Below, one piece after another: positions 6,515 through 51,029 of a DNA stretch of 64,000 bases (the stretch's first letter is position 1; the number at the start of each line of letters is the position of its first letter). This DNA is from Physcia stellaris. Its lineage: Eukaryota > Ascomycota > Lecanoromycetes > Caliciales > Physciaceae. A program made the position numbers and the translations under genes. Location of the stretch: assembly GCA_018902385.1 (NCBI GenBank), contig JABSSW010000029.1, forward strand, positions 124,001-188,000, read 5' to 3'. Below the pieces are notes generated by a model, which made no database searches, had not been told where the DNA came from, and saw nothing but the letters and a program-made list of their open reading frames with translations.

Positions 6515-6540
6515 CGCGATTGTATGGCGTATACCCCAGC

Positions 6541-6655
6541 AGACCTCCGATTACCAGACTTGGGACGGAATCAGAAGATGACGTTCTCCTCATGGCATCT
6601 TCATATGCTTTGTGCCAAAGACGGGCACGCGGCTTGTCATGAATGGCTGTATTAG
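6541..6655 (+). repeat. dispersed short repeat, copy D
   Basis: This shares ACGGAATCAGAA, TCATATGCTTTGTGCC and AAAGACGGG with copies near 10.1, 36.7, 44.6 and 50.7 kb. The flanks carry complementary ACCCG/CGGGT-type blocks in the better copies. It overlaps the tail of a weak minus-strand ORF. Confidence 0.55.
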
Positions 6656-21605: not shown

Positions 21606-24600
21606 TTATCCTGCGCCTGCCTGACCCTGTTCTGGATCCTTGGCATGAGCCTCGCTCACGTTCACAGCGAGGAAGCTCTTCGGTAGCTTTACGGTGTTGA
21701 ATTTGGCTCTCAGCGTCTCAATGACTTCTTTCCAGTCTTGGTGTGCTGTGAGACTTCGTCGTGGCGCACAGCCAATGGAATGCTTTGAGTCGAGCACAAC
21801 ATGGAGCGGATCAACGGTATGGCACCCTGGACTGATGCTAATGCGGATACTGTATTCAAAGGTGTCGGCGTCTTTATCCTCAGATTCATAAAGCTCAAAG
21901 CTAATTGTAGAGAGGTAATCCAGTTCGGGAATGGCGTTTCTCTCAATCTTCGTCTTGATGCCACCTTCGAGGATGCAGTTGAGTAATGTGTAGATGTGGG
22001 ATTCTTTGGTAAAATAGATGAAAGACTTCCCTTCTTCGGATGCCTGCACCTCTTCGAGATCTTTCACAACCTCTTTCAAGAGAGGCAGCGATGTCAGAAG
22101 CCCGATTTCCAATTTTTCACTATCATCAATGCCGTATTCCTGGGGACAAACAAAGTCAAAGAGAATCTTGGCCAACCTATACAGCTCACGCAGCTTCTCT
22201 AGTCGAATATCTAACTTAGCCTTGGTTTGACCGCTACCAATGAAGAGCTTGAAGTATGACTCTTGCATCTCCTCACGGGACGGTTGGGGTGATGGCGGAC
22301 TCAAGACAGACTTCCTCCTGAATCCCATCCGAGACGAAAGACTACTGCTTGGTGGCTTCTCCGTAAACTTCTCGTTACCGCTATCTTTCCTTTCATGGGC
22401 TCGGGTAGTGGTTACGTCTTGTGGAAGTGCTTTCACAGGCTGCTGCGCGGCTACCGGGCGAGTTGGCTGCTCATTGGCCGCAGCATTACCGAGCACAGAT
22501 TGTTGCGATGTGGCCGACCCATTTTCTGATGCATTTGAAGGAGTTTGATCCGAGACTGGATTGTCATCTGCCAGCATACCGGGTGGGGGCGTGAACACCC
22601 ATTCCAAGAAATTTCGATTGTGCAAGGCGTCAAACTTCATAGTATCGTAAAGCTCGGAGATTTTGCTTGGGTCAACCTTTTCGGAATCGCAGAATTCGGT
22701 AAACAGCTTCTCCCATCTCTCCTTGAATAATTCTGCATCCTCACCACAACACCATCTCGCTTGGATTTGTGCAAGGTTCTTAGCTTGAGCCATAGCTCCG
22801 CCAGAAGCTGATGCAGACTTCGTTGTGCTATCGGATCCTCCAGTACTTTTGGCTGCACTTTGACTGGCGGTAGATCCTGAAGTACTATCGCTCAAACTGG
22901 ACACTGAGGCAGCCGCAGTACCAGCAAGCGTCTTGAAGTTATGCCTCATAACTTTTCTGTGAAACACCATCAGCTCAACAACCGTACGCACGACGACCGA
23001 CGGTTCGGGCGTGTTAGGAGGCCAGGCAAATTGTGGGGGTGCTTGATGACCCTCTCTTAGCAATAGCTTTAGCTTTTTCTTGACCTTGTCCATCACGTCC
23101 TTTGCAGCGTTAGAGTCATCTAGAAGATCTTTTCTCACAGTGATAAAACTATCAGATGTATCCTTTTTATTGAGGAATGATGCTGCCCATATTTGTGCTT
23201 AAAGGATTTCAGTGCAGTTCTTCCAACGGTATCAGGCCACTTACCACTCGTGCTGACTCGCTTCTCGGAGCTTGTGAATACACGCACATTATCCAGGATT
23301 TCGGTATTCATCAGTGATAGATCACTTCGCATATTCTCCCCCAAGTCCTGCGATTGGTACCTAGCGGCATGTGTCGGCTCTCCTCCCCACTTGATGATCA
23401 ATTGCAATTTATCCAGAATGAGATCATTTTCAGCAGCCGAGAAACGAGAAAGCGTAACGTCAGTCAGAGAATCGCTTCTGTTGTGCGACCTGGTTTGATC
23501 TTTTAACCCTTCGGGCTCCAAGACAATCTCTTTAGCGATAATTGGAGAATCCGGTAATGGCTCTCCATTGTCTACGCTAGCTCGAAGCTTCCTTATCTCC
23601 TCCGGTTTCCTTTTACGAAACATTGGCTTGATTTGAACTTTCGTTCCCGTCCATGCGCCCTTCCGAGCGAGGGCGGTTCTCAATATTTGGAGTTTGCCAG
23701 GATCCTCAATCCCTTCCTCCATTGCCAACTTCACAGCATCAAGAACGCTATTCAGTGCAGCTTCCCCTTTAAGCAACACTTCTTCTTGATGGCCTTTCAG
23801 AAGTTTTACGAAGGGCTGAGTGCTAAAAGTAAATTTGAACTTCTGCTTTGGTGTTCGATCGGCATGTCTAATGACAGAGACCATTCCCTTAAGCTTCCAG
23901 GAATGCTTCGATGACGGTTGTGGCACAGGATCCAAGGGCTCTCCGGCGGGTGACGTTGGTTGAGTAGTGATTTCGCTTGGCTTTGGGATGGGTAAGCTTG
24001 GGGAAGGGAGCTTGTCGGTGGCTGGCACCTTGACAGGCAGAGACGCAATTTTATTGTCGATACTTGGTGGTGAAGATAATGGAGGGGTGGAGGTAGCTAG
24101 CTCTGGAGACGCGGTGCCATGGGTGCGATGGGCAAGGTGATGCCCTTTCAATTTGCTCATGCTTGGTGATTTGATGATGTCTTTGAGGGTAGAGCGATGA
24201 TTGGCGGTGGTGTTCTTACGTTGCGGCAAGCTTTCTATAGCCGGCTCTTCTGTTGTGCCCGGAACTTGTGCAGCTCTACCACGCTTCTGCTTCTCCTCGA
24301 CGAACATCTTCCTAAGTATTCCAGCGCATGCGTCGTAATAATTGTTGTTGTCTTTGACAAAACTCCAGCCATTCACATCGATTACGAAGCTTTGAGTACC
24401 AGACCTAAGCAGATCAAACCCGCAAATACGCTGTCCAAAGCCATTGGCGATTTTTGATGCCATCAGCGACTCCTCAGCTGTGAGATTAACGACAAATCTT
24501 ATTTCCTTTCCATGGTTATTCCTGCGCACGAGGCCGTCGACGACAGGGGATATGCGAGTCTCGGAGTGACAATAATCCGGGCCAACGGTATACGCTTTGA

Positions 24601-26314
24601 TATCCTCTGCGTTGACGACGTGAAGAAATTTCTCGTAGACGTAGCTACTATTGCCGTCAAGAACTGCTTGGGGAATAATCAGACTGGGGTCCCATTCGGA
24701 GCTTTTGTTACCAATCTTTCTAAATAGCTTGCGAGCACCGCCACCATCATGAGATCTGGGGAAATAGATGCGGATGTTGTGGTCTTCGCCACTGACAGGC
24801 TTCTCTACGAAAGGCTTTCTGATAGTCTTCCCATCTACTAATAATACATCGCCGTCTTCAAGAGCTTCAACCCTTTGAGGCTTGGGTATCCCTCCGCCAG
24901 TGCCATCATCAGGACCTTCTAGCCTGACTCCACTGAGCAGTCGCACATGGTCAGCAAGCTCGGGAGATTCAAGTTTTGGCCCACCGTCTCTGTTGACTTC
25001 TATTCTATCTGGGGTTGGAACACCCATGCTGTCGAGAACGCGTAAGCAGATTCTGCGGTCCCACAATATCTTTTGCATTGGTAGATCGTTAACGACGAAT
25101 GGCTTGCGAAGTTTGACATATGCTATTGCTTTATCCAAGGGGAAACCCTCGGAGAAGAATGAGATTAGGAAATCGCAGACAGGCCAATTCTCGACGTCTT
25201 CGTCCTGAATGACCTTGTCACCAAATATTAAAACCTCGAACTCTCCTTGGGACTGAAGGCGAGTAAGAATGTTACGGCTGGGCTTACTACGTGCTTTCGC
25301 ATCAAGAGCGCAGACACCCAACTTTCCCACATGGGGTACCTTGACACGATCACTACTGCTAGGGCTAGCAGTGCTACTAGCAACATTACTACCGCTTGGC
25401 TGTCTTTGTGTCCTGCTTCGAGATCGACGCGGTGGCTGTGGTCTTGCCAAGGCACCAGAAGACCATGACTCGGACGGTACGGCGGTATCTTTCGTGGCAC
25501 CTGATGGGACAACATGGTGCAACTGAGCATTCGCAGTCACTGATACTGGATCAGCAGCGGTGGTAGGTGCTGAAGGCACGTCACCCTTGACAAAACCTTT
25601 CGTAGGCGATACCGGGACCGTAGAGGAACCAGTCTGGGCCAACGGGGCTCCTTTGACCGATCCGGCATTCGAGCTTGCGGTACTCTGGGGTGCACTGGCT
25701 GTTGCAGTAGCCCCGCCACAGAGCGCGGAACCTAGTGAATATAAAGACGAAAAGGACAACCGGTTGCCTACACTTTCCGTATCCGGGGCAGAGGGTTTCA
25801 GAGACGCTTCTGGCAAAGTCAACTGTTCTGCGGTAGATTTGCCCTCGGATCCGCTTTGTAGCGGAGTCTTCTCGGCGTCATCAAGCACAGCTGAATCGTC
25901 TTTGGCTTTCTTCGCGTTGACATCTATATCTGCCAGTGGGCCACTCTCGATGTTGGGAAAACCCGCGGAAGGGCGGCGTGATGTTGATGGTCTGAAGGTG
26001 GAAGATGGCTTGGTGGCTGGCGGAGGCATCGATATGCTTGCTCTACCCACATTCCCACCTATTGTTCCGACATCTGCGAATCTGCTCTTTCTGTTCGTTG
26101 CCGCAGATAATGCCGAACTTGTGAGTAGCGAGTGGGAGGGAGCCCGTGGCTTTGTTCCGGATGAAGAGCGTTTCGGTAGATCCAATTGATCATTTATTGA
26201 CGGATCTGTCTGATCTGGTCCTACTTCCTGCCGTCCGACCTCTCCAGAACTGATGTGGGAGGTCTGTGAGGACGCAGCACTCTCGCGGCTTATCGTTCGA
26301 GACAACGAGGCCAT
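21606..26314 (-). CDS. asp1: Inositol hexakisphosphate/PP-InsP5 kinase (VIP1/asp1)
   Basis: Bifunctional enzyme of inositol pyrophosphate metabolism: an ATP-grasp kinase makes 1-PP-IPs and a histidine-phosphatase-like domain removes them. Two exons: complement(21606..23197, 23245..26314), 1553 residues. The intron is 47 bp; the acceptor at 23198 restores [14 protein letters not shown]. Seen: a long Ser/Pro-rich N-terminus (about residues 1-330), kinase domain from [15 protein letters not shown] through [34 protein letters not shown] and [17 protein letters not shown]-like IDVNGWSF, a linker, the phosphatase signature [12 protein letters not shown] near residue 815, [28 protein letters not shown], and a C-terminal part with [16 protein letters not shown] and [17 protein letters not shown]. 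The start is the first ATG of the open frame, divergent from UTP21 271 bp away. Confidence 0.96.
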
Positions 26315-36363: not shown

Positions 36364-36900
36364 GTTTATGCCCCGTCTTGTAGGTGATATTCACTCCACT
36401 GATAACACTTGTGTCAGGTTGACTGTACCGGGTTATGGCTCGTCCGCGGAGCGGCGTTGCGGCTGTGAGGATATTGATCGGGGGAGATAGACTAGGTTGT
36501 GAATGATGTTCTGCTTGGGCCCCCTTCTCGGCGGTTTTCTGGCTGTTGGATGGTACTGGTACTTTCTCTGGGAAACAGAGCTCTAATTCTAGGAACAGCG
36601 TTTTCAGCTCGGAAATGGAATAGAGCAATGTGGGTTGTTCCCATGGTCTGGTGTGGTGCGATCTTGCCTCCCATGCATACACCCAATATGATAAATCGAC
36701 TTACCCGTGTTTGGTACAAAGCATATGAGACGACATGAAGACAACGTCATCTTCTGATTTCGTCTCAAGCCGGATATTCGTAGATCTGTCGATGTTTCGT
36801 AAAAAAAAATTAGCATCACTTAATACCAAATCACGAGAAAATTTCGTCATAAATTCGAGTTTCTCATTCATTGTGAACTCGAAACTAATCAAACATCAAG
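36364..36900. other. gene-free flank of the transposon block
   Basis: Contains dispersed repeat copy A (36699..36785, minus) and then turns AT-rich from about 36790, just before the left terminal inverted repeat. No gene recognised. Confidence 0.5.
36699..36785 (-). repeat. dispersed short repeat, copy A
   Basis: Read on the minus strand it contains GACGAAATCAGAAGATGACG, then CTCATATGCTTTGTACC and AAACACGGGTAA, matching copies C, D and E. A CCCATGGTC motif lies about 60 bp to its left, as it does beside copy B. Confidence 0.55.
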
Positions 36901-37003
36901 TATTAACGTATGCATATCTCATCGAAAAACTCGCTTAAATGCGAATCCGCAATTTCTTTCTTCGCATCAAGTTTCGATGTGATTTTTGAAAAATTCAATT
37001 TTC
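36901..37003 (+). repeat. left terminal inverted repeat
   Basis: 103 bp. It differs from the right TIR at about seven positions. Six are C/T or G/A transitions whose mutated cytosine is followed by C or T. One is a T/G transversion. Confidence 0.85.
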
Positions 37004-37454
37004 AATTCAGCAAATCATTGCTCGAAAATTCACGCAATTTGTCAATGAGTAGTATATCGTTTTGAGTTTCTGTATATTTCGTTTAGCGTTTTCATGATGT
37101 TGCAATATTGATTCGTCACGCAATCAATTCATTTTTTTCGTCGTCGCAATGTCAATTATTATATTCGTTGCGATTCGTTCTCGTTTTGTTCGTTACATTT
37201 TGTTGAAATGAAATTTTGCAAACATCGTTGTTGAGATTCATTGCGCATTTTTCACAATATATCAAATTCGAAACAACATGTTCTTTTATGATTTTTCGTT
37301 CAAATTCATTTTTCGATCTATGAACGCGTGCAGAAAAATAATCGTTGCAACAAAAAATTCGTTAAAGAAATATTTCGAAAAACAATCGTGAATTTATCAA
37401 AAAAAAATGATGTGATTTTTGTGAAAAAAATGAAACATATTCGTTCATCAATTT

Positions 37455-37640
37455 TGTTGAGAAGTACAGCCTCCGCAAGAAGGTAACCAAGGATCCAGTT
37501 GGTATAACCTGACGAAAGAAGAACTAGTGCGTCCCTATTGAATCTAATGCCTTGGCATCGCACACATCAGAGTCTTCAATCTGCCTGTATCTTAGAAATT
37601 ACACGCAATTCATGCAGTCATTGTCCATGCCTGTTTAACA
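37455..37640 (+). repeat. 5' (left) LTR
   Basis: 186 bp, TGTTGAGAAGTACAG ... CTGTTTAACA. It is the less mutated LTR. Aligned without gaps to the right copy it differs at 23 positions, all transitions. Confidence 0.9.
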
Positions 37641-37816
37641 AATTATGAGTCCGGGTTCAGCGTATGCTGTGCTCGTGACAATGATGTTGCAACTGCCTGG
37701 CAAGCAGTCCGGCCTGGCAAGCCGTGGATGTGTGTCCTTAGGGATTTGGGCCCCTTCGTACAGCGGACTCGCACCCATTACCGCATCGCTCGACCACGAT
37801 ACGGGCCATGAGGGCC

Positions 37817-37963
37817 AACGGCTGTGAGGAAAACTCACCGTTCGACCGCGTTAAGGCAGTAGAGAGAATCTACAAAAGCTCGATCACCAGCTCTGCGAGT
37901 GAGCAAACGGCTGTGAAAAAAACTCACCGATCGACCGCGTTAAGGCAGTAGAGAGAACCTACA
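37817..37963 (+). repeat. direct repeat inside LTR element (2 x 58 bp)
   Basis: Copies at 37817..37874 and 37906..37963, both containing CGACCGCGTTAAGGCAGTAG. Differences are two G-to-A changes, one C-to-T and one transversion; the transitions again sit at CpC/CpT. Confidence 0.8.
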
Positions 37964-39010
37964 CGGCTCTGCGTTGAAGGCAGAAAGACTGGAGAATGTC
38001 AGTTCAACCTTACATCTATCGACAATCGGTCACGCTCAATCAAGTACGACAATGACTCGATATTCACATGATCACTCGTCAACTCGCCAGTTAGCTATGT
38101 ACGATATGAAACAGCTACTTTACTGGCACTCGCCAAATCGCCACACGTGACATTCTTATTCATTCTTCGACTTCGTCTTTACATCTTGTTCAGCTACACG
38201 TCAAGAAAAAACTAAAATAAGAACATAACAAGAGATAGAAGCGATGAATATACGTCAAGAAGTCGAAATCTGTTGATGCAAAAAATGCCGACTCGCTCAT
38301 TTCATCATCTATTCTCAAATTTTCAATCTGGCCAACGATGATCTACATCGCATGTTTTCTGAGAAACCGAAATCAATGAGTCTGCAACAGCATCAAGTGC
38401 GCTCGTTCTCTTCGCGCAGTTCTGACAAATGCAATCTCAAAAACAGTGATCGCTTCATACAATTTCGCATTACGTCATGTCTCAATGCGAACGACCTTAT
38501 TTGCTTTCAAAACGGTCGAATTCGAAATCTTCAAAATCTACACATGCTCGCGAAAATCTTCCGCGCCAATTCTCGATTCCGATGCACGTTTCTCGATTCT
38601 CGAAAATTTCTCACTCAACTTCAATCTGCAGACGCTGTCAAGAGCATTTCGTCATCTATTTGTCTAACGATTGATTCACATCGATCGTCTCGAAAGTCGA
38701 GAAAATCTCTATTTGAGAGTACTGATCTGAAGAAGTCACAAAAGTTATTTGTTTTCGAACTCAAAAGTTCTAAATCGTGTTAATTTGTTTTATTTGTATC
38801 CTTCTCGTCCGTTCTATCACTCATTTAGAAAGAACATCATGATTTGAGAAAGTCTAGCATGTTGTTATTTTATTGATTTGTAGAGAAATTGATTGTTCTT
38901 CTTTGTGCTTCGTCTTGATCTAGCACGATAACTCATCTACTCTCTACATCCTGCGATTCGTTATCGAACGATAAATACGAGAGAGAGAAAAATAAATAAA
39001 ACGATCAAAC

Positions 39011-39320
39011 GTGACAGTATCGCTTCGAAAAGCGTATTGTACAATCAGAAAAAGAACAAAATGCGTGACAGTACAACTTCGAAAAAGCGTGCTGTACAAT
39101 TACAGCAGTGAGCCTGTTTCAATGATGTATCTTTAGTGAGTCTGCTACAACGATGTATTTCTAGTGAATCTGCTACAATGATGTACAGCTTCGGAAAAAC
39201 GTACAGTCAATACACTAGTACAGCATGAAGTCACATAATATCGCTTCGAGAAAGCGTACTATACGATCACTAATACAGCATGAAGTCACATAGTATCGCT
39301 TCGAGAGAGCGTATTATGCA
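39011..39320. repeat. array of about five imperfect hairpins
   Basis: Units near 39015, 39066, 39180, 39228 and 39280 follow the pattern AGTATCGCTTCGARAAAGCG then TACTGTACAATC. The arms AGTA-CGCTT and AAGCG-TACT can pair. The last two units share the flank ACAGCATGAAGTCACATA. They lie in the interior of the LTR element and encode nothing recognisable. Confidence 0.6.
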
Positions 39321-39919
39321 ATCATTACATTCTCGATCTCGCAAAACAAGAACTCGATCAAAAAGAACTGAAAATATCTGATCTTTTCGCATACTAATCG
39401 ATCTGATTCTCTGGCAAATCTTAGTCAGAATCGAAAAGCTCGAATCTGCACTCTTTACATCGATGTATGCTCGCAAAAACCTGTCGCGCATTCGATGCAT
39501 TATCTTTCTTATCGATTTCTCGATCATCTCTCATCTTTTTCACTTCGTTGACATATCTTCTGAATTTCCTACAGCCAAATCACATAAATATTGAATCAAC
39601 GAGAACGCAATGTGAAATGAGAAATCCGAGACATCTGTGAAATCAATGAGTCACAGAACGAGCCGTCAATGTGTTGCGTCTTCACTCTCGCCTCAACGGC
39701 AATATTCAGACGAAAAATACTTGTTTCACGATGTGTCTTCTAGTCAAATCTAGATATCAGTTGTCGCATCGATGCATCATCTCATGAAAAAACGTAAAAC
39801 GTTTTCAATCACTCGATCGCACGTCTTACAATTCGACTTTACGTCATATCTGAAGTCAATAAATCATCGAATTTCGATTCGTTCGTTTCTGCACTCTTCG
39901 CATCGATGCATGATTTCAT

Positions 39920-40190
39920 CACGTCGAGAAAGTTTGTTCGAAAGCTTCAGACAATACGTCGCTGAAAAAGCACTAAAATGCGCATCACTGAAAAAGTTTC
40001 AGAAGTTTGCAGCAATGACAATCATTCTTATTCTTCAATAGATCGAAAATCTATCGCGTTGAAAGAGCTTGCTCGAAAACTTCAAACAACGCATCGTTGA
40101 GAAAGTTTGCACGAAAACTTCAAAATACACATCGCTGAGAAATTCTCAGAACTCGTCGCTGAGAAAGTTTGCACGAAAGCTTCAAACATC
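39920..40190. repeat. degenerate tandem repeat
   Basis: The phrase GAGAAAGTTTGCACGAAARC followed by TTCAAA recurs at least four times with spacing of about 30-60 bases. It probably expanded within the LTR element; no coding role seen. Confidence 0.5.
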
Positions 40191-40250
40191 ATGATATTTG
40201 CTTTGAGCAGAAGATGCAAACAGAAAACACAAACGAATGCTGTGAAGAAA

Positions 40251-40436
40251 TGTTGAGAAATACAGTTTTCGCAGAAAGATAATCAAGAATCCAGTTGATA
40301 TAATCTGACGAAAAAAGAACTAGTGCGTTTCTATTGAGTTTAGTGCTTTGACATCGCACACATCAGAGTCTTCAATCTGTCTGTATCTTAAAAATTACAC
40401 GCAATTCATGCAGTCATTGTTCATGTCTGTTTAACA
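40251..40436 (+). repeat. 3' (right) LTR
   Basis: 186 bp, TGTTGAGAAATACAG ... CTGTTTAACA. It carries most of the C-to-T and G-to-A changes relative to the left LTR. Confidence 0.9.
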
Positions 40437-42891
40437 AATTTACAATTTCTCGATTCATAAAAAAAATACAATGAAATAACAAAAAAAATCAACGAATTGA
40501 TCATCGACGAGACGATGATTTTCGTTTGCATTGAATCGCAAATCTTTTGCACGTTATCGTCGAACAAATGATGTGCGTGAACGAAATTTTGTTCAATGAA
40601 ATGATTGATTGACGTCATCGAACATATGTTTTCATTGAACAATTTGTTCGTTATCATGTTGATCGAAAGCGAGAAATTTTTTGAAATGTATTTTTTGTTT
40701 ACATCATTTGAAATGAGTTTCATTATTCGTTGAAATCGAAATTTTGATTGATTTCAATGAACAAACTATTTGTTTTGTACAAACATCAAAAAAAATTGAT
40801 TCAAATTCGATGATTTTTACGAATGATTACGATTCGATTTATTATCGTTATGCGACGTTTATTCTGTTCACAAAAACGTGATTATTATGAACAACGTCAA
40901 TACTCATTGTAATGCACGCATCAAAGAATTCATTGAAACACATAAATGTCAAATCAAATATTTTTTTTTCTATTTTTCAGATTATAATTCAATAGAATTG
41001 AGTTTCTCGATTTTAAAAATTTGAATCAAAACGCATTTTCACGAGATGTGATTTCGTTTTGAAAACATATTTGAAAATTTTTGAAATATGCGATGAAACA
41101 AAATCGATGCGATCGTTTTGCGATGAAACACTTCAAATATAATGTTAATAAATACATATTCGAAAAAAAATTGAAAACTTTTAATGAGCGATTAGACGCT
41201 GAGCTAGTCAATTTCGAAACTCTTGAGTGTTAGATGATTTCTAGTTTTTTGCAAATAGAATAAGAATTTTTCGAAATCATACAATGAAAATATTAAAATG
41301 TAAAACTCAAAAAATGTGACGTCAAAAATGTATAATAGAAACGATTGTATAATTAAATTAATAATTGCAAAATTAACTATTTAGCAAATTTTCAATTATA
41401 TAATTAGTCAATTTGTTCAATCGTACACACATTTCAAAACTAATTCGAAAATATAAATTTGTTGAATTCAATCAAAAATTTGATATTGACGTGATCAAAT
41501 TGATCGTCTTCATGATTTACTCGCTTCGATGATCGAATTGTTTGATATTCACATGTATGCGAATTGAATTTTTTCAAAATGCAGAAATAAAATGAAAATT
41601 TATCATACAAAATCGCTTTTTTTTTTCGAATAAACAGACGAAATCGTGTTAAAAAACTAATAAAATCGAAAATCATGTAAAATTTTTAAATGTTACGAAC
41701 TTCATCGTTTACATCATCAATATTTCGATTTCAATTTCTCTTCGCATCGATATCTAACTTGAAAAATTATGCGATGATGATGACGAAAATTGAAAATCAT
41801 ACGAGTTGTATATTGATGAATATATCATTTGAGAAAATTGATATTCAAACGATGTTTGCGAAACATAAAAAATTTGATATGCATGATGCGCATGTTGTTG
41901 TAATCATGCAAAATATGCAATAAACATTTGAAAAAGTTCAAAAATAAACATTTGAAAAAATTCAAAAACAAAAATCGAATATTGATATGCAAAAATCGAA
42001 AAAGATGCATCGAATATACTCATTGTTTTGCGATGACGTGTTTTTTGTATTTTTTTAATTTTTCGTTCGTAATTTTTTTTTTTGACGTTTTTTCTTTTCG
42101 CGATAACGTTTAGTTCAGTTGATCGTGATTTTCGTTTTTTCATGTTTTTGCTTTTTCAACGATTGTTTATTGTTCGCGATAATAGAATTTTGTTCGAAAA
42201 ATCATTCGTTTCACAATTCAGCAAATGAATTCGTGACGTTGATTTCAATTTTTGCTGTCGTCATATTTTTGATTCAACGATTCATTTGAATCGAATTCAT
42301 GCTGTAATGACGTTTTTTTGTTTGTTTAACATCAGATTTCAAAATTGCGACATCGTTCGTTTTTACATTGTCATCTATTCACGAGCTTCTTTTTTTCAAT
42401 CGAAACGAAATTAATTGCTTTTTTTCGAGTTTAAATTGATCGATACGAGTGTGTCTTTTGAACGTGAATGTATCGTCAATTGAATCGACGATAATCTCAG
42501 CAAATCGTTTCATGATTGATTTGATTGTTTTCAATTCGTCGTTTTTGATTTGTTTTTTTGCAAACATTTTGAAAAAGTCGATTTTGTAACGAATATTCAA
42601 AAATATCTCAATCTCGAAAAAGATTTCTGATTTCTTTTTCGTCTTCGTCATAGCAATTTTGATTAATTTATTAGCAATAACAATGACATCGTCTCATTCG
42701 ATTTCGAAAAAATTCTTCATTGATTGTTTAGTTCATTTTTCTTTCGAATGTGATTTTACAAAAATCAAAATGTTGCTGTTGATTCAATTCAATTCGTCAT
42801 CGTTTTGTACAATAATTTCGTAGATCAAATCGTTCTCAAAGAATTTCTGAATGCTGAATTCGTTTTTACGAATATTCGTGTATTGAGTGTT

Positions 42892-43731
42892 TCAACAGAG
42901 AAATTTGTTGTCGATTCTCAATTCGACTCGAATCGTCATCAAGAAATTTTCAACTAATTTTTCAATTTTTTTTTTCTTTTCGTCTAGATGAAGTTGCAAT
43001 AACTCATCAAAAAATAAAATATTCATGTTTTTCATGACGAGCAATTTCTTTCTACGTCGACGTTCTATTTTTTCAATTTCGAATTTAATCATTTCAGCGT
43101 TTTTTTCGACGTTACGACGAGTTTTTTTCACAATTTGTTTATGTCGAACGCGAATTGCAACATTCGTTTCTTTTTGCAAATCGACGACGTAAATTGTTTT
43201 GATTTTTTTATTTTTTTTGCTATTGATCGCAGTTTCGTGAAAATCAGCATTGACAACGACGTCGAGAATATTGTTTGAAAATCGATCAAAATAAAAAAAT
43301 AAAAAGAATTTTCGACGTCGATGTTGAGAAATTCGAAACGACAAAAATTCAGAATTGAAAAATATAAAAACTTCTTCTCGAGAGCGAAATGTAATCAATT
43401 GACGAAATGTAAAAATATTTTTTTTTTCGAGATCACGTCGTTTCTTTTCAAAATTATCAATTTTTTGTTGACGACGTGCAATCTCGTCACGTTCAACTTT
43501 TTTTTTTGTTTTTCGTATAGCAAACGCGTCAAAACTTTCATTTTTTTTTTCGCGATTCAAATCATTCACGATATCACGAGCACGATTTCGTGTTGTTCGT
43601 TTTTCACGAATTTGTTTATCACGAGCTTTTTTCGTTTTGATTGCGTTTGCAATGATTTTTTGAAAAATTTTGTTTGCGTCGATGAATGATTTGAATTTTG
43701 CAAACTTTTTGATGACGATTTTGAAAAACAT
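42892..43731 (-). CDS. long relic ORF in the hypermutated element
   Basis: 279 codons without a stop, very rich in Lys, Arg, Glu and Phe and with no Trp. It starts about 95 bp inside the right TIR. Composition is dominated by the C-to-T/G-to-A bias (AAA, TTT, GAA codons), so domain reading is unreliable; basic coiled-coil-like stretches such as RKTKKKVERDEIARRQQK are visible. It is probably the remains of the element's own gene. Survival of the frame fits a mutation process that spares CpA: CAA, CAG and CGA do not become stops, while TGG becomes TGA, consistent with the missing Trp. Confidence 0.3.
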   Translation of the reverse strand: MFFKIVIKKFAKFKSFIDANKIFQKIIANAIKTKKARDKQIREKRTTRNRARDIVNDLNREKKNESFDAFAIRKTKKKVERDEIARRQQKIDNFEKKRRDLEKKNIFTFRQLITFRSREEVFIFFNSEFLSFRISQHRRRKFFLFFYFDRFSNNILDVVVNADFHETAINSKKNKKIKTIYVVDLQKETNVAIRVRHKQIVKKTRRNVEKNAEMIKFEIEKIERRRRKKLLVMKNMNILFFDELLQLHLDEKKKKIEKLVENFLMTIRVELRIDNKFLC

Positions 43732-43825
43732 TACGAGACGACGAAACGACGAAACATCAAAAATTGATTAAACGAATTGTACAGAAATGTGATTTGAAGC
43801 ATGCAATCAAAAATTTCAAATAATC

Positions 43826-43928
43826 GAAAATTGAATTTTTCACAAATCACATCGAAATTTGATGCGGAAAAAGAAATTGCGAATTCGCATTTAAACGAGT
43901 TTTTCGATGAGATATGCATACGCTAATA
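43826..43928 (-). repeat. right terminal inverted repeat
   Basis: Inverted partner of 36901..37003. Both share GTATGCATATCTCATCGAAA and TTTCGATGTGATTT. Similarity ends sharply after CAATTTTC. Confidence 0.85.
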
Positions 43929-45930
43929 TCAAGCATCAATCATCAATTTCATCTTTCGAATCGTCATCTCCAAATTCACATTCTCGTTTTCTGAAACTAC
44001 ACGGCGCAAGATATCTCATTAACGCTTGTATTCAACGCATCATTTCATTTCATCTCATTTCACAACTAGCGTCACTTTTAACTTTCATCTCAATTCTCAG
44101 TCTCACTTTTTCAGACTCTCATCTCGTTGCTCGCTCATGACTATTCACTTTTTGTCTAGTTTTTTCTTGATGGGTCAATAGTTGTATCTTGAATTGCTAC
44201 ACTTCCGCTTTCATAGAAGTAGATAGTAGTGCTACGCATCTCCTCCAGCTTAAGGTAGATACATTGTGCCCGCTTCGGAGGTTTTGTGGGGGGCTTGGAG
44301 GTTTTTTGAGGATTATTGTAGGGTTTTGGTACGGTTTGGTTCTAGAGATTGATGATGATGGTGGAAGGAGGGGTTTATGTATGGGAGATGGGAGATGGGA
44401 GATTGGGAGGAGGAGATTGGATAGCGTGAATCTGGATAGTGGAAATTATTGGTGTGATTTGGGGATAGTGTGTAAGGATATGAGAAAGAGATAGAAGAAT
44501 GAATTATTTCATCATCGTTGATGAGACAATATAAGAGACGATGCGTGTATCCCATGGTCTGACAATAAGTCGTGCTTCTTTTTATAGATAGATATACCCA
44601 CAGACCTGCGAGTACCCGAAATCGGAAAATGGTAGTCATCTTCATATGCTTTGTGCTAAATGCGGGTACGCGTTTTGTCATGACAGATGTATCTGCTAGT
44701 AGTGGCAAGATACAGATCGTGTGATAATTCGCATGCTTGTTCTTTCTTTCTCGCTCTAGAGATGACAGCAGGCAAGGGGAAACCACCAAACAAAACCCCG
44801 CAAACGAAACCCATAACGCAAAAACCACCACTCAGCGTCCACTAGACGCAAGAAACGGATTCGCTTCTAGAGTCCAAAACCCTCTGACGTTACTTCCAGG
44901 AGGGACCATGAGCTCCCCACTAGAAACCGATATAATGATGTCCAGATCGAAAAACGTCATGGTAAAGGTAGTTTTGCAGCTCATCATCTAATGAGACTGT
45001 TTGAAAAAGACCTCTTCTCTCCTTCTCCATCCCACCCTCCTATCCCACCCCATATCCACAGCCCCTCACACAATCAAACATACCTAGCAACGAAATCGCC
45101 AACCCCTCAACCCCCAAGCCTCACCCATAACCATCCCTTGAAAATCTCAAGATCATACATTCCTCCCACCCATATCCATACCTTGACCTCCTTGCCCATC
45201 ATTCCGCGCTGAAAGCACAAGAACCTCAACCTTCGAATCTGCAGAATGAGGGATAAGATCTGCAAGGCCAGCGAGAGTGGTCAATGATTCCAAACCACCA
45301 CCCACTCCACTGTCCCATCCCTATCAGATCTCCTCTATCCCTTCCCAGGTAAGACCCACCACCTCCCATCACCTCCTCAGCCCGCGCACATCTGCGCCTC
45401 TCGCGCGAGCGACCCTTTTGGGGGAGGGATATGGTATCAGATCGCTGCTAAATACGTTTCGGGAGAGTGGGGATTTGAAGCCAAAGGCGCAGGGTGGGAA
45501 GAATGATAGAGATGGGGATGGAGATGAGGGCCCATCAATGAAGCTCGCGAGCGAATCGATGGGAAGGTGGAGAGATTCGCTGGCTGGTTAGGGATTCTGG
45601 AGGGAGGTGGGCATGAGGGGATGACGAATCGAAAATAGTTCAATTATAAAGAATCTATAATTCGAGATAAAAGGGATAAGAGATGAGAGGGTATCGAGGA
45701 ATGACTGGACTATTTTCCGGAATGAGACAGGCGTTTCAAAAATTGGGACATACGTAGGGAAACATTGCTTTGGATTTTGAATTTTTGGAAGACAGCTATA
45801 TGGGGAGTTGGTGACTGAGTTTTGCCTGTTTTAGAGCTTTGTACGAATACGAACGAACCGCGGATGGAAGAGGGATGATAGATTGTCGGATTTCGGGAGG
45901 ATTTTGTTGATTGGAGGAGGGGAAGTTTAG
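43929..45930. other. gene-free stretch right of the transposon
   Basis: Holds AT- and TC-rich flank to about 44160 and dispersed repeat copy C (44602..44690). The remaining short open frames show no domain. The 172-codon minus frame at 44313..44831 crosses copy C and is probably chance. Confidence 0.45.
44602..44690 (+). repeat. dispersed short repeat, copy C
   Basis: The best-preserved copy for the ends: GCGAGTACCCGA on the left and GCGGGTACGCG on the right form an inverted pair around TCATCTTCATATGCTTTGTG. This suggests a very short inverted-repeat element of about 70-75 bp. Confidence 0.6.
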
Positions 45931-50154: not shown

Positions 50155-51029
50155 TTGCGTGTCCCTTCAAAACGATGTGTTGTTGATTGCGGGCTTGGCA
50201 ACGGGGCGGAGTCTGTTCCATCTCCCCTACGAGGCTTCCGCCATCTGTATTTCATCACATGCTTGACTCATGATCCTACGTCAGCTGACATGTATCATAG
50301 GGCACTGGATCTTTCGAGCACGTGTGTCGAGTGCGACGATATCCTGATCAGCTCGATATCTCAAAACGGCAGCAATGCTATAAAGACAGAGCAATTTCCA
50401 TGGTGGGTACTTCCGAGCAACGTAATTCCCAGAAGTTGCGCCCTCCTAAAAGAGATGGTATAAGCATAAGTTGCCTCTAGCAGCGACTCGAGCCCTGGGA
50501 AGTTGCAATGATCGAGTCTATTCCCAGTCTGAATTCAGTAACCGCGAGCTCTCCGGGTACTAATAGGCGCTACTCGTACCCGGGGTAGGGACTCGCGATT
50601 ATCCCATGGTCCGATGAGCTTTGATCTCAATTTCCATGCATTGCCACATTATATTCACTGTGGTAAGACACAGATCCGTCTCTGGTACAAAGCATATGAG
50701 TATGACACGAAGCAAACCTCGGCTGTCAGGTATATGCAAAATATCGTACCACTGATATCAAGCTGTGTGCGGACCTATACAATTCCAATACACAAATCAG
50801 AGCTATACCAGCACTCATATCTAGGAACAGTCTCGCTGACTGCCATGCTCTCCGTAGAATTATATTTGGAACAAACATTGTAGTCATAACGCAGCTGTCT
50901 CGAGTGTCTACTATCCAACAAGAGTCTGCAAACCCTCCATCTAAACCACCTAACCACCGAAATTTAGATATCACGATATTGGACCACCCCACCCAAGGAC
51001 CAGCCAATCTCCTCTCCCCACCGTCCCCA
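50155..51029. other. intergenic, holds dispersed repeat copy B
   Basis: Upstream of the esterase gene and beyond the 3' end of the F-box-like gene. Copy B of the dispersed repeat is at 50668..50732. Open frames here are short and cross the repeat. Confidence 0.45.
50668..50732 (-). repeat. dispersed short repeat, copy B
   Basis: On the minus strand: ACTCATATGCTTTGTACCAG then AGACGGATCTG. It lacks a good match to the ATCAGAA block seen in copies A, D and E. CCCATGGTCCGATGAG lies about 70 bp to its left, similar to the left flank of copy A. Confidence 0.5.

What the first reader, a model, noticed from the sequence alone, without database searches (positions are those of the whole stretch)
36901..43928. 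Transposon hypermutation at CpC/CpT, sparing CpA and CpG
Seen: the two 186 bp LTRs align without gaps and differ at about 23 sites, all C/T or G/A transitions. Reading each from the strand where C changed, I count roughly 14 at CpC and 9 at CpT, none at CpA or CpG, although CpA sites are abundant in both copies. The six transitions between the terminal inverted repeats and the three between the 58 bp direct repeats obey the same rule. From about 41.4 to 43.9 kb CC and GG are almost absent while CG and CA stay common. Known: classical RIP in Pezizomycotina favours CpA and raises TpA. Inference: a genome-defence cytosine mutator with CpY, mainly CpC, preference, either a variant RIP or another deaminase-like process acting on both strands.
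Basis: partly seen in the sequence, partly recalled or inferred. Interest (0 to 1): 0.88.

Follow-up and report, generated by a model that had tools for sequence, protein, structure and literature searches.

The report
Lichen RIP that mutates CpC, CpT
In a lichen fungus, repeated DNA has been mutated from C to T almost only where the next base is C or T, the reverse of the usual rule of the fungal repeat-mutation defence and a pattern that the usual detection indices miss.

Summary
The two 186-bp LTRs (37455-37640, 40251-40436) differ at 23 sites: 13 CpC, 10 CpT, none at CpA or CpG, no transversions. A protein search places the genome in the lichen fungus Physcia stellaris. Unmutated against mutated copies: C to T at CpC 87%, CpT 68%, CpA 9.5%, CpG 7.3%, with little effect of the 5' base. 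An rRNA pseudogene, whose ancestral letters are known, gives CpC 26/33, CpT 19/35, CpA 0/40, CpG 2/44. Both strands are hit; 72 of 80 sampled windows and several insertions are not. Standard CpA-based RIP indices flag 0 of 215 AT-rich windows. In N. crassa and T. reesei CpC ranks last (PMC5496416); a 1,239-genome survey calls CpA the shared preference (PMC12543289). Best reading: repeat-induced point mutation with an inverted next-base rule. The genome encodes a DIM-2-like enzyme and two RID-family methyltransferases. One (A) belongs to a divergent clade with changes at catalytic-loop residues conserved in the rest of the family: the candidate enzyme, untested. APOBEC-type editing, UV and slow 5mC decay fit worse. 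Old copies also show some CpA change (about 8-10%).

The parts
36901..43928 (.). AT-rich terminal-inverted-repeat element, heavily CpY-mutated outside the nested LTR element
   Evidence: 107-bp inverted repeats at the ends; flanking TCAAG on both sides; CC 0.00-0.07, CT 0.39-0.41 observed/expected in 36781-37460, 40441-41400 and 41400-43930
36901..37007 (+). left terminal inverted repeat
43822..43928 (-). right terminal inverted repeat; 6 of 7 transitions against the left one are CpY
37455..40436 (.). nested non-autonomous-looking LTR element (2,982 bp), target duplication AATTT at 37450-37454 and 40437-40441
   Evidence: many relatives in the genome
37455..37640 (+). 5' LTR, unmutated type (15 CC+GG)
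   Evidence: (192-bp version)
40251..40436 (+). 3' LTR, CpC-depleted type (1 CC+GG), 23 transitions from the 5' LTR
   Evidence: (192-bp version)
37455..38000 (.). stretch left unmutated between mutated parts (37461-38000: CC 0.84)
38001..40260 (.). intermediate stage: CpC largely gone (0.17), CpT still at 0.98
37814..37874 (+). direct repeat copy 1 (partner 37903-37963)
37903..37963 (+). direct repeat copy 2
43929..44160 (.). flank outside the TIR element, CpC-poor (0.13) with normal CpT (1.08); 43929-44200 is single-copy

Best explanation
A repeat-induced point mutation (RIP) process whose next-base rule is inverted. In duplicated DNA, cytosines of either strand become thymine when followed by C (first) or T (later), seldom when followed by A or G. 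Shown here: the context rule, its reach over the genome samples, both strands, the direction C to T (rRNA pseudogene), graded stages, and that CpA-based indices miss it. Supported but indirect: dependence on repeats and on high identity, and short spread into a single-copy flank. Inferred: that it happens before meiosis, and that a RID-family C5-cytosine methyltransferase carries it out. The divergent paralogue A (L009, contig C6) is my preferred enzyme (about 40%); paralogue B (L011, contig C5) and the DIM-2-like gene (L010, contig C3) are alternatives.
For: LTR pair 13 CpC + 10 CpT of 23. 112 alignments, 51 kb: CpC 86.8%, CpT 67.7%, CpA 9.5%, CpG 7.3%, T to C 2.8%. rRNA pseudogene: CpC 26/33, CpT 19/35, CpA 0/40, CpG 2/44, T to C 1/174. 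Fixed-position sample: 2 of 20 spots AT-rich with CC 0.0, CT 0.15, CG 3.59, CA 1.26; the other 72 of 80 windows normal. Unmutated elements lie between CC-free flanks in L022, L023 and L037. Twelve unmutated copies or pieces are at most 89.4% identical to each other over 400 bp or more. RID-family and DIM-2-like genes present; A departs at Q300, F307 and K310 where 46, 50 and 50 of 50 other rows agree.
Against: CpA preference, the usual RIP signature, is absent. No cross, timing or methylation data. Searches sorted copies by CC content, which raises CpC by construction. Old copies carry some CpA and CpG change (31 of 378 and 3 of 161 over 12 LTR pairs; 9 CpA and 10 CpG in one distant TIR copy). 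Unmutated copies up to 89% identical exist, so the process is not complete, and 37455-38000 escaped without explanation. Nothing links A to the mutations directly.
Confidence: 0.8

Rival explanations
1. Variant RIP as above, but carried out by the conserved paralogue B or by the DIM-2-like enzyme, or shared (RID for CpC, DIM-2 for CpT), not by A. This is a rival to the enzyme assignment only and overlaps the best explanation.
For: B has close relatives across Lecanoromycetes and Leotiomycetes. DIM-2 of Neurospora is reported to prefer CpT (PMC13297926, passages). CpC loss precedes CpT loss.
Against: B keeps the family residues at the loop positions where A departs. Botrytis RIDs branch near B's side of the tree, and Botrytis has CpA/CpT signatures (PMC4352252, passages). 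One enzyme with a several-fold CpC preference explains the stages without a second one.
Confidence: 0.45
2. Long-term cytosine methylation of heterochromatin at CpC/CpT followed by ordinary deamination of 5-methylcytosine, without a RIP burst.
For: A DIM-2-like gene is present; non-CG methylation with CpT preference is known for DIM-2 (PMC13297926, passages).
Against: 23 transitions with no other change in 186 bp and near-complete CpC loss beside intact CpA point to a strong, quick process; CpC, not CpT, leads.
Confidence: 0.1
3. A cytosine deaminase of APOBEC/AID type acting on single-stranded DNA of transposons.
For: Strong dinucleotide rule and C to T only; the genome has 9 deaminase-like (PF00383) matches over the cut-off out of 11, which were not examined further.
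Against: The 3' base decides and the 5' base hardly matters, whereas APOBEC enzymes read the 5' side (recalled). Both strands (12 C/T, 11 G/A), a TIR element and rRNA genes are hit, which reverse-transcript editing does not predict.
Confidence: 0.08
4. Ultraviolet damage at dipyrimidines in a sun-exposed lichen.
For: CC and CT are dipyrimidines; lichens are exposed.
Against: TCA, TCG, CCA and CCG (5.4-12.6% changed) are spared while ACC, GCC, ACT and GCT (64-88%) are hit; 72 of 80 sampled windows are untouched.
Confidence: 0.01

Closest known systems
RIP of Neurospora crassa (RID and DIM-2 dependent)
   Same: C to T on both strands in repeats, AT-rich relics, rRNA pseudogenes affected in other ascomycetes (PMC5555474, passages), RID-family and DIM-2-like genes in the genome
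   Different: N. crassa order CpA>CpT>CpG>CpC (PMC5496416, passage); here CpC>CpT>>CpA, CpG. TpA is depleted, not raised. Premeiotic timing unknown.
CpT-type RIP of Botrytis, Sclerotinia, Magnaporthe, some Colletotrichum truncatum families
   Same: CpT is a target, RID/Masc1 gene present (PMC4352252; PMC6180176; passages)
   Different: In Botrytis, Sclerotinia and Magnaporthe CpA is a target beside CpT; in the CpT-labelled C. truncatum families TpA/ApT is 1.61-1.67 and the substrate index about 0.1, unlike the 0.4 and 1.3 found here. CpC is not named as a signature in those passages.
RIP of Trichoderma reesei
   Same: Demonstrated RIP with a preference other than that of N. crassa
   Different: CpC ranks last there too (PMC5496416, passage)
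Strong RIP in the lichen fungus Cladonia rangiformis
   Same: Lecanoromycete with bimodal G+C, RID and DIM-2 homologues (PMC12542154, passages)
   Different: Dinucleotide context not given: the words dinucleotide, CpA and CpT do not occur in its main text
TpCpG-type mutation in Microbotryum
   Same: Repeat-linked C to T with a non-CpA context (cited in PMC4352252, passages)
   Different: CpG is the target there, and no RID/Masc1 gene was found; here CpG is spared

Membership tests
RIP (repeat-induced point mutation) | C:G to T:A transitions on both strands of repeated DNA | tested here: met
RIP (repeat-induced point mutation) | Confined to duplicated DNA, single-copy DNA spared apart from near flanks | tested here: inconclusive
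   72 of 80 fixed-position windows normal; transposon relatives and an rRNA copy mutated; single-copy right flank CpC-poor for about 230 bp. Copy number was not tested for every mutated block.
RIP (repeat-induced point mutation) | Triggered by high sequence identity between copies | tested here: inconclusive
   No unmutated pair above 89.4% over 400 bp or more among 12 copies or pieces; two genome searches with capped scoring show no non-self match above 81% over 1 kb or more
RIP (repeat-induced point mutation) | Occurs before meiosis, in the sexual cycle | not testable with these tools
   The species fruits abundantly (PMC7513301, passages); no crosses
RIP (repeat-induced point mutation) | Requires a RID-family (or DIM-2) methyltransferase | not testable with these tools
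   Genes present; requirement needs knock-outs
RIP (repeat-induced point mutation) | CpA as main target with raised TpA (usual, not universal, signature) | tested here: not met
   CpA 9.5% against CpC 86.8%; CpA 0/40 in rRNA; 0 of 215 AT-rich windows positive by RIP indices
RID/Masc1 methyltransferase subfamily (paralogues A and B) | C5-methyltransferase motifs and place in the tree with named members | tested here: met
   PF00145 in relatives P0002 and P0122 and at the loci; PPCQ, QxRxR and QIGNAVPP motifs; tree with A. flavus DmtA and lichen RIDs
RID/Masc1 methyltransferase subfamily (paralogues A and B) | Family-conserved catalytic-loop residues (His, Asp, Asn) | tested here: not met
   Met by B; not by A, which has Q300, F307, K310. 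A is filed as a divergent member on tree and motifs.
MIP (methylation induced premeiotically) | Repeats methylated but not mutated | tested here: not met
   The repeats are mutated; methylation state unknown
APOBEC/AID-type editing | Specificity set by the bases 5' of the cytosine (recalled) | tested here: not met
   5' base changes CpC conversion only from 85.7 to 87.9% and CpT from 63.9 to 70.0%

The most novel reading that the evidence does not exclude
A second RID-family enzyme, seen here in Physciaceae (Physcia, Heterodermia) and unnamed environmental relatives, has rewired its catalytic loop (His to Gln, Asp to Phe, Asn to Lys at family-conserved sites) and thereby swapped the next-base rule from purine to pyrimidine: a natural specificity switch in the enzyme of RIP, giving a CpC-first genome defence that CpA-based surveys cannot see.
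Probability: 0.35. Interest if true: 0.87.

Novelty: new variant of a known kind. Interest (0 to 1): 0.76.

Why it matters
In the papers I saw, RIP is tied to CpA with CpT or CpG beside it, CpC is the least favoured context in N. crassa and T. reesei, and a 2025 survey of 1,239 genomes concludes that RIP-like defences share a CpA preference. Here the order is turned round. A natural variant of this kind makes the open question of how the RIP enzyme picks its cytosine testable by gene and loop swaps in a laboratory fungus. It also exposes a blind spot: the standard indices score these relics as free of RIP, so genomes called RIP-negative need rechecking for CC and CT loss. By the genetic code, CpY mutation can make a stop from only one sense codon (TGG to TGA), so relics may keep long open frames: 13 of at least 150 codons in 57.5 kb, none in mononucleotide shuffles; gene finders may call such frames genes.

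Tried and rejected
UV damage and APOBEC-type editing were set aside on trinucleotide and strand data. A two-enzyme reading (RID for CpC, DIM-2 for CpT) stays open: CpC loss leads, but one enzyme with a several-fold CpC preference explains the stages too. Two weak 5.8S matches on C32 and C39 were dropped: one shares only a 23-base match with the rRNA locus, the other none. The 279-aa frame 42892-43731 matched no Pfam family. The 9 deaminase-like genes over the cut-off were not examined. Other lichen genomes could not be examined; no positive control of the RIP indices on a known RIP genome was run here. An earlier attempt to file this report was malformed and was returned; this version was checked against the calls. 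In that check the enzyme rival went from 0.35 to 0.45, because it overlaps the best reading and A has about 40%, and the CpA changes in old LTR pairs were added.

Selection that bears on the counts: and 33 copies were sorted into unmutated and mutated by CC content, which favours a high CpC figure by construction; the gap between CpT and CpA is not affected that way. One search used 30 LTR copies (hits of at least 140 bp in 20 fetched loci and the window): 10 unmutated, 20 mutated, none in between. Against a single reference even the 9 other unmutated copies differ at CpC 28/135, CpT 30/225, CpA 12/275, CpG 0/90. One search used 112 of 1473 alignment lines. The six intermediate bins were picked by CpC above 50% and CpT below 50%. 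For the rRNA comparison seven stretches of the Rfam alignments printed were used, gapped and variable parts left out; only positions in upper case in the consensus were counted, neighbours in either case, and the consensus is for all eukaryotes. The tree (quick method) used 71 of the 232 proteins held, chosen by hand, plus A and the DIM-2-like protein; the residue comparison used 19 A-type and 50 other rows, with Physcia B in twice (own model and P0122). Genome searches score only the best candidates, so their counts are lower bounds.
Full report
WHAT WAS CLAIMED.

The LTR element is 37455-40436, with 186-bp LTRs, TG...CA ends and an AATTT target duplication; it sits inside a TIR element 36901-43928 flanked by TCAAG. 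The LTRs differ at 23 sites, all transitions: 13 CpC, 10 CpT, none at CpA or CpG, while 31 CpA and 10 CpG sites are kept; 12 changes read C/T and 11 G/A. The chance of missing CpA and CpG altogether is 4.7e-9 (on 37461-37644). The 61-bp direct repeats give 2 CpC, 1 CpT and 2 transversions. From 41400 to 43930 CC is at 0.01 of expectation, CT 0.41, CG 2.94, CA 1.21 and TA 0.34, against CC 0.95 and 1.01 in the two large flanking stretches of the window.

WHOSE GENOME. The window lies in contig C29 of a 43.97-Mb, 147-contig assembly. A protein of Physcia stellaris (G7Y79_00005g016670) is 100% identical to one of its methyltransferases over the searched region and lies on a contig of 1,184,035 bases, the length of contig C5. 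P. stellaris is a lichen-forming fungus (Lecanoromycetes, Caliciales, Physciaceae). Its genome paper (PMC7513301, passages) gives 46.57 Mb in 184 scaffolds, so the held assembly is not the whole of it; it reports 43.32% G+C and cultures from ascospores, and its main text does not contain the word RIP.

THE PATTERN REACHES BEYOND THE WINDOW. In 20 loci fetched for LTR relatives plus the window, 500-bp windows below 32% G+C show CC 0.00-0.07, CT 0.12-0.40, CG 2.8-4.1 and CA 1.24-1.39. Because those loci were chosen for repeats, I took 2-kb spots at one fixed position on contigs C1 to C20: 2 of 20 are AT-rich, with CC 0.0, CT 0.15, CG 3.59 and CA 1.26, and the other 72 of 80 windows are normal. 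Of 30 LTR copies, 10 hold 12-27 CC+GG and 20 hold 0-1, while CA+TG (28-35) and CG (5-9) stay the same. Left window LTR against the 20: CpC 278/300 to T, CpT 383/500, CpA 43/617, CpG 2/200; T to C 81 of 2175. Longer comparisons (112 alignments, 51 kb): CpC 86.8%, CpT 67.7%, CpA 9.5%, CpG 7.3%, T to C 2.8%; across the four 5' bases CpC varies only from 85.7 to 87.9% and CpT from 63.9 to 70.0%. Sorting by CC raises the CpC value by construction, but not the gap between CpT and CpA. One search gives the same picture per segment.

RESULTS AGAINST A PERFECT RULE. One TIR-element copy differs from the window at 8 CpC, 24 CpT and 4 CpA; a more distant one at 1 CpC, 27 CpT, 10 CpG and 9 CpA with 6 transversions. 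A slow CpA change or ordinary divergence is thus present.

POLARITY IS SETTLED BY AN rRNA PSEUDOGENE. The only 5.8S match above cut-off among those scored (C41:45899-46052) lies in DNA of 31% G+C with LSU and partial SSU matches beside it. At positions that Rfam marks as conserved, CpC is T in 26 of 33, CpT in 19 of 35, CpA in 0 of 40, CpG in 2 of 44, and T became C in 1 of 174. The copy is not a transposon, and its ancestral letters are known. RIP-mutated rRNA copies are known from other ascomycetes, mainly at CpA, with CpT raised in N. crassa (PMC5555474, passages).

STAGES AND BORDERS. CpC goes first: 38001-40260 has CC 0.17 but CT 0.98, and six intermediate bins pool to CpC 63.2%, CpT 25.5%, CpA 6.7%, CpG 5.7%. 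Unmutated elements lie between CC-free flanks in L022, L023 and L037. The right flank 43930-44160 is CpC-poor (0.13) with normal CpT (1.08), and 43929-44200 is single-copy, which looks like spread beyond the repeat; the left flank was not tested for copy number. Seven unmutated elements (L038 is mutated at one end) and five 800-bp pieces are 67-89% identical to one another over at least 400 bp, the highest pair 89.4%. This fits an identity threshold but does not prove one. Why 37455-38000 stayed unmutated I cannot say.

WHY CpA-BASED INDICES MISS IT. With The RIPper's thresholds (product TpA/ApT above 1.1, substrate below 0.75, composite above 0; PMC6714961, passages), 0 of 215 overlapping one-kilobase windows below 36% G+C are positive; in the bins below 30% and 30-36% median TpA/ApT is 0.45 and 0.42, and the median substrate index 1.36 and 1.32.

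CANDIDATE MACHINERY. PF00145 gives four matches at three genes: a DIM-2-like one (L010; named from memory by its make-up) and two RID-family genes. Paralogue A (L009) has, in my model, two introns and 513 aa; paralogue B (L011) is 932 aa in P0122; they share 39% over the methyltransferase part. In a 73-row tree A lies in an 18-row clade (SH-aLRT 100) with Heterodermia aff. obscurata and unnamed proteins, in a larger group with Eurotiomycete DmtA proteins; B lies with other lichen RIDs. Heterodermia, also Physciaceae, has both types. At six columns the A clade carries its own residue where the rest of the family agrees. Three of them follow the catalytic PPCQ closely: Q300 for H (46 of 50 others), F307 for D (50 of 50), K310 for N (50 of 50). 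A sequence alignment puts the Heterodermia loop opposite the DNMT1 loop GMNRF. From memory, that loop enters the DNA beside the flipped base, which is why I prefer A as the source of the new rule; nothing here tests it, and no structure was predicted.

RIVALS. Slow 5mC decay fits the CpT part (DIM-2 CpT preference, PMC13297926, passages) but not CpC leading, nor 23 transitions without other change. APOBEC-type deaminases are disfavoured because the 3' base alone matters and both strands are hit. UV is set aside because TCA, TCG, CCA and CCG are spared (5.4-12.6%).

WHAT IS KNOWN. N. crassa: CpA>CpT>CpG>CpC; T. reesei has CpC last too (PMC5496416, passage). Ten genomes: CpA, CpT and CpG signatures; every genome with CpA or CpT had a RID/Masc1 gene; the word CpC does not occur in the main text (PMC4352252, passages). 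CpT-dominated RIP is reported elsewhere (PMC7882544; PMC6180176; CpA with CpT in PMC10998396; passages), so CpT as such is not new. [quoted passage not shown] the 130 species with strong recent signatures are Dothideo-, Eurotio-, Sordario- and Leotiomycetes (PMC12543289, sections 9 and 10 read); CpC, lichen and Physcia do not occur in its main text. Cladonia rangiformis: strong RIP judged by G+C (PMC12542154, passages). My literature searches showed me no report of a CpC- or CpY-preferring RIP; I saw most of the listed papers only as titles and abstract openings, and the library lacks most subscription papers and bioRxiv.

VERDICT. Confirmed and extended: an RIP-like process with an inverted next-base rule in a lichen fungus; a new variant of a known kind. 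The specificity is shown, RIP as the mechanism is likely, and the enzyme is a lead.

Noticed in passing
L009 (contig C6) and L011 (contig C5): Two RID-family methyltransferase genes of separate tree branches in one genome; Heterodermia has both types as well.
   Followed up: partly
L042 and L065 (contig C41:42001-49000): A CpY-mutated rRNA gene copy; no intact 5.8S was found among the scored matches, so the working rRNA array seems to be missing from the held assembly.
   Followed up: partly
37455-38000: The first 546 bases of the LTR element are unmutated while DNA on both sides is CpC-depleted, with a border near 38000 inside the element.
   Followed up: no
43929-44160: A single-copy flank lacks CpC but keeps CpT, as if a light first round had spread about 230 bp beyond the repeat.
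   Followed up: partly
42892-43731 (-) and AT-rich blocks in L025-L036: Long open frames persist in mutated blocks: 13 of 150 codons or more in 57.5 kb against none in shuffles; no Pfam family in the window's 279-aa frame.
   Followed up: partly
36677-36788, 6540-6652 and 50676-50720: Short interspersed repeats of about 45-114 bp, 79-82% alike, in normal-G+C DNA; their CpC content was not counted.
   Followed up: no
23135-26314 (-): A 1,059-aa open frame that looks like part of a VIP1/Asp1-type inositol polyphosphate kinase (named from memory, not searched).
   Followed up: no
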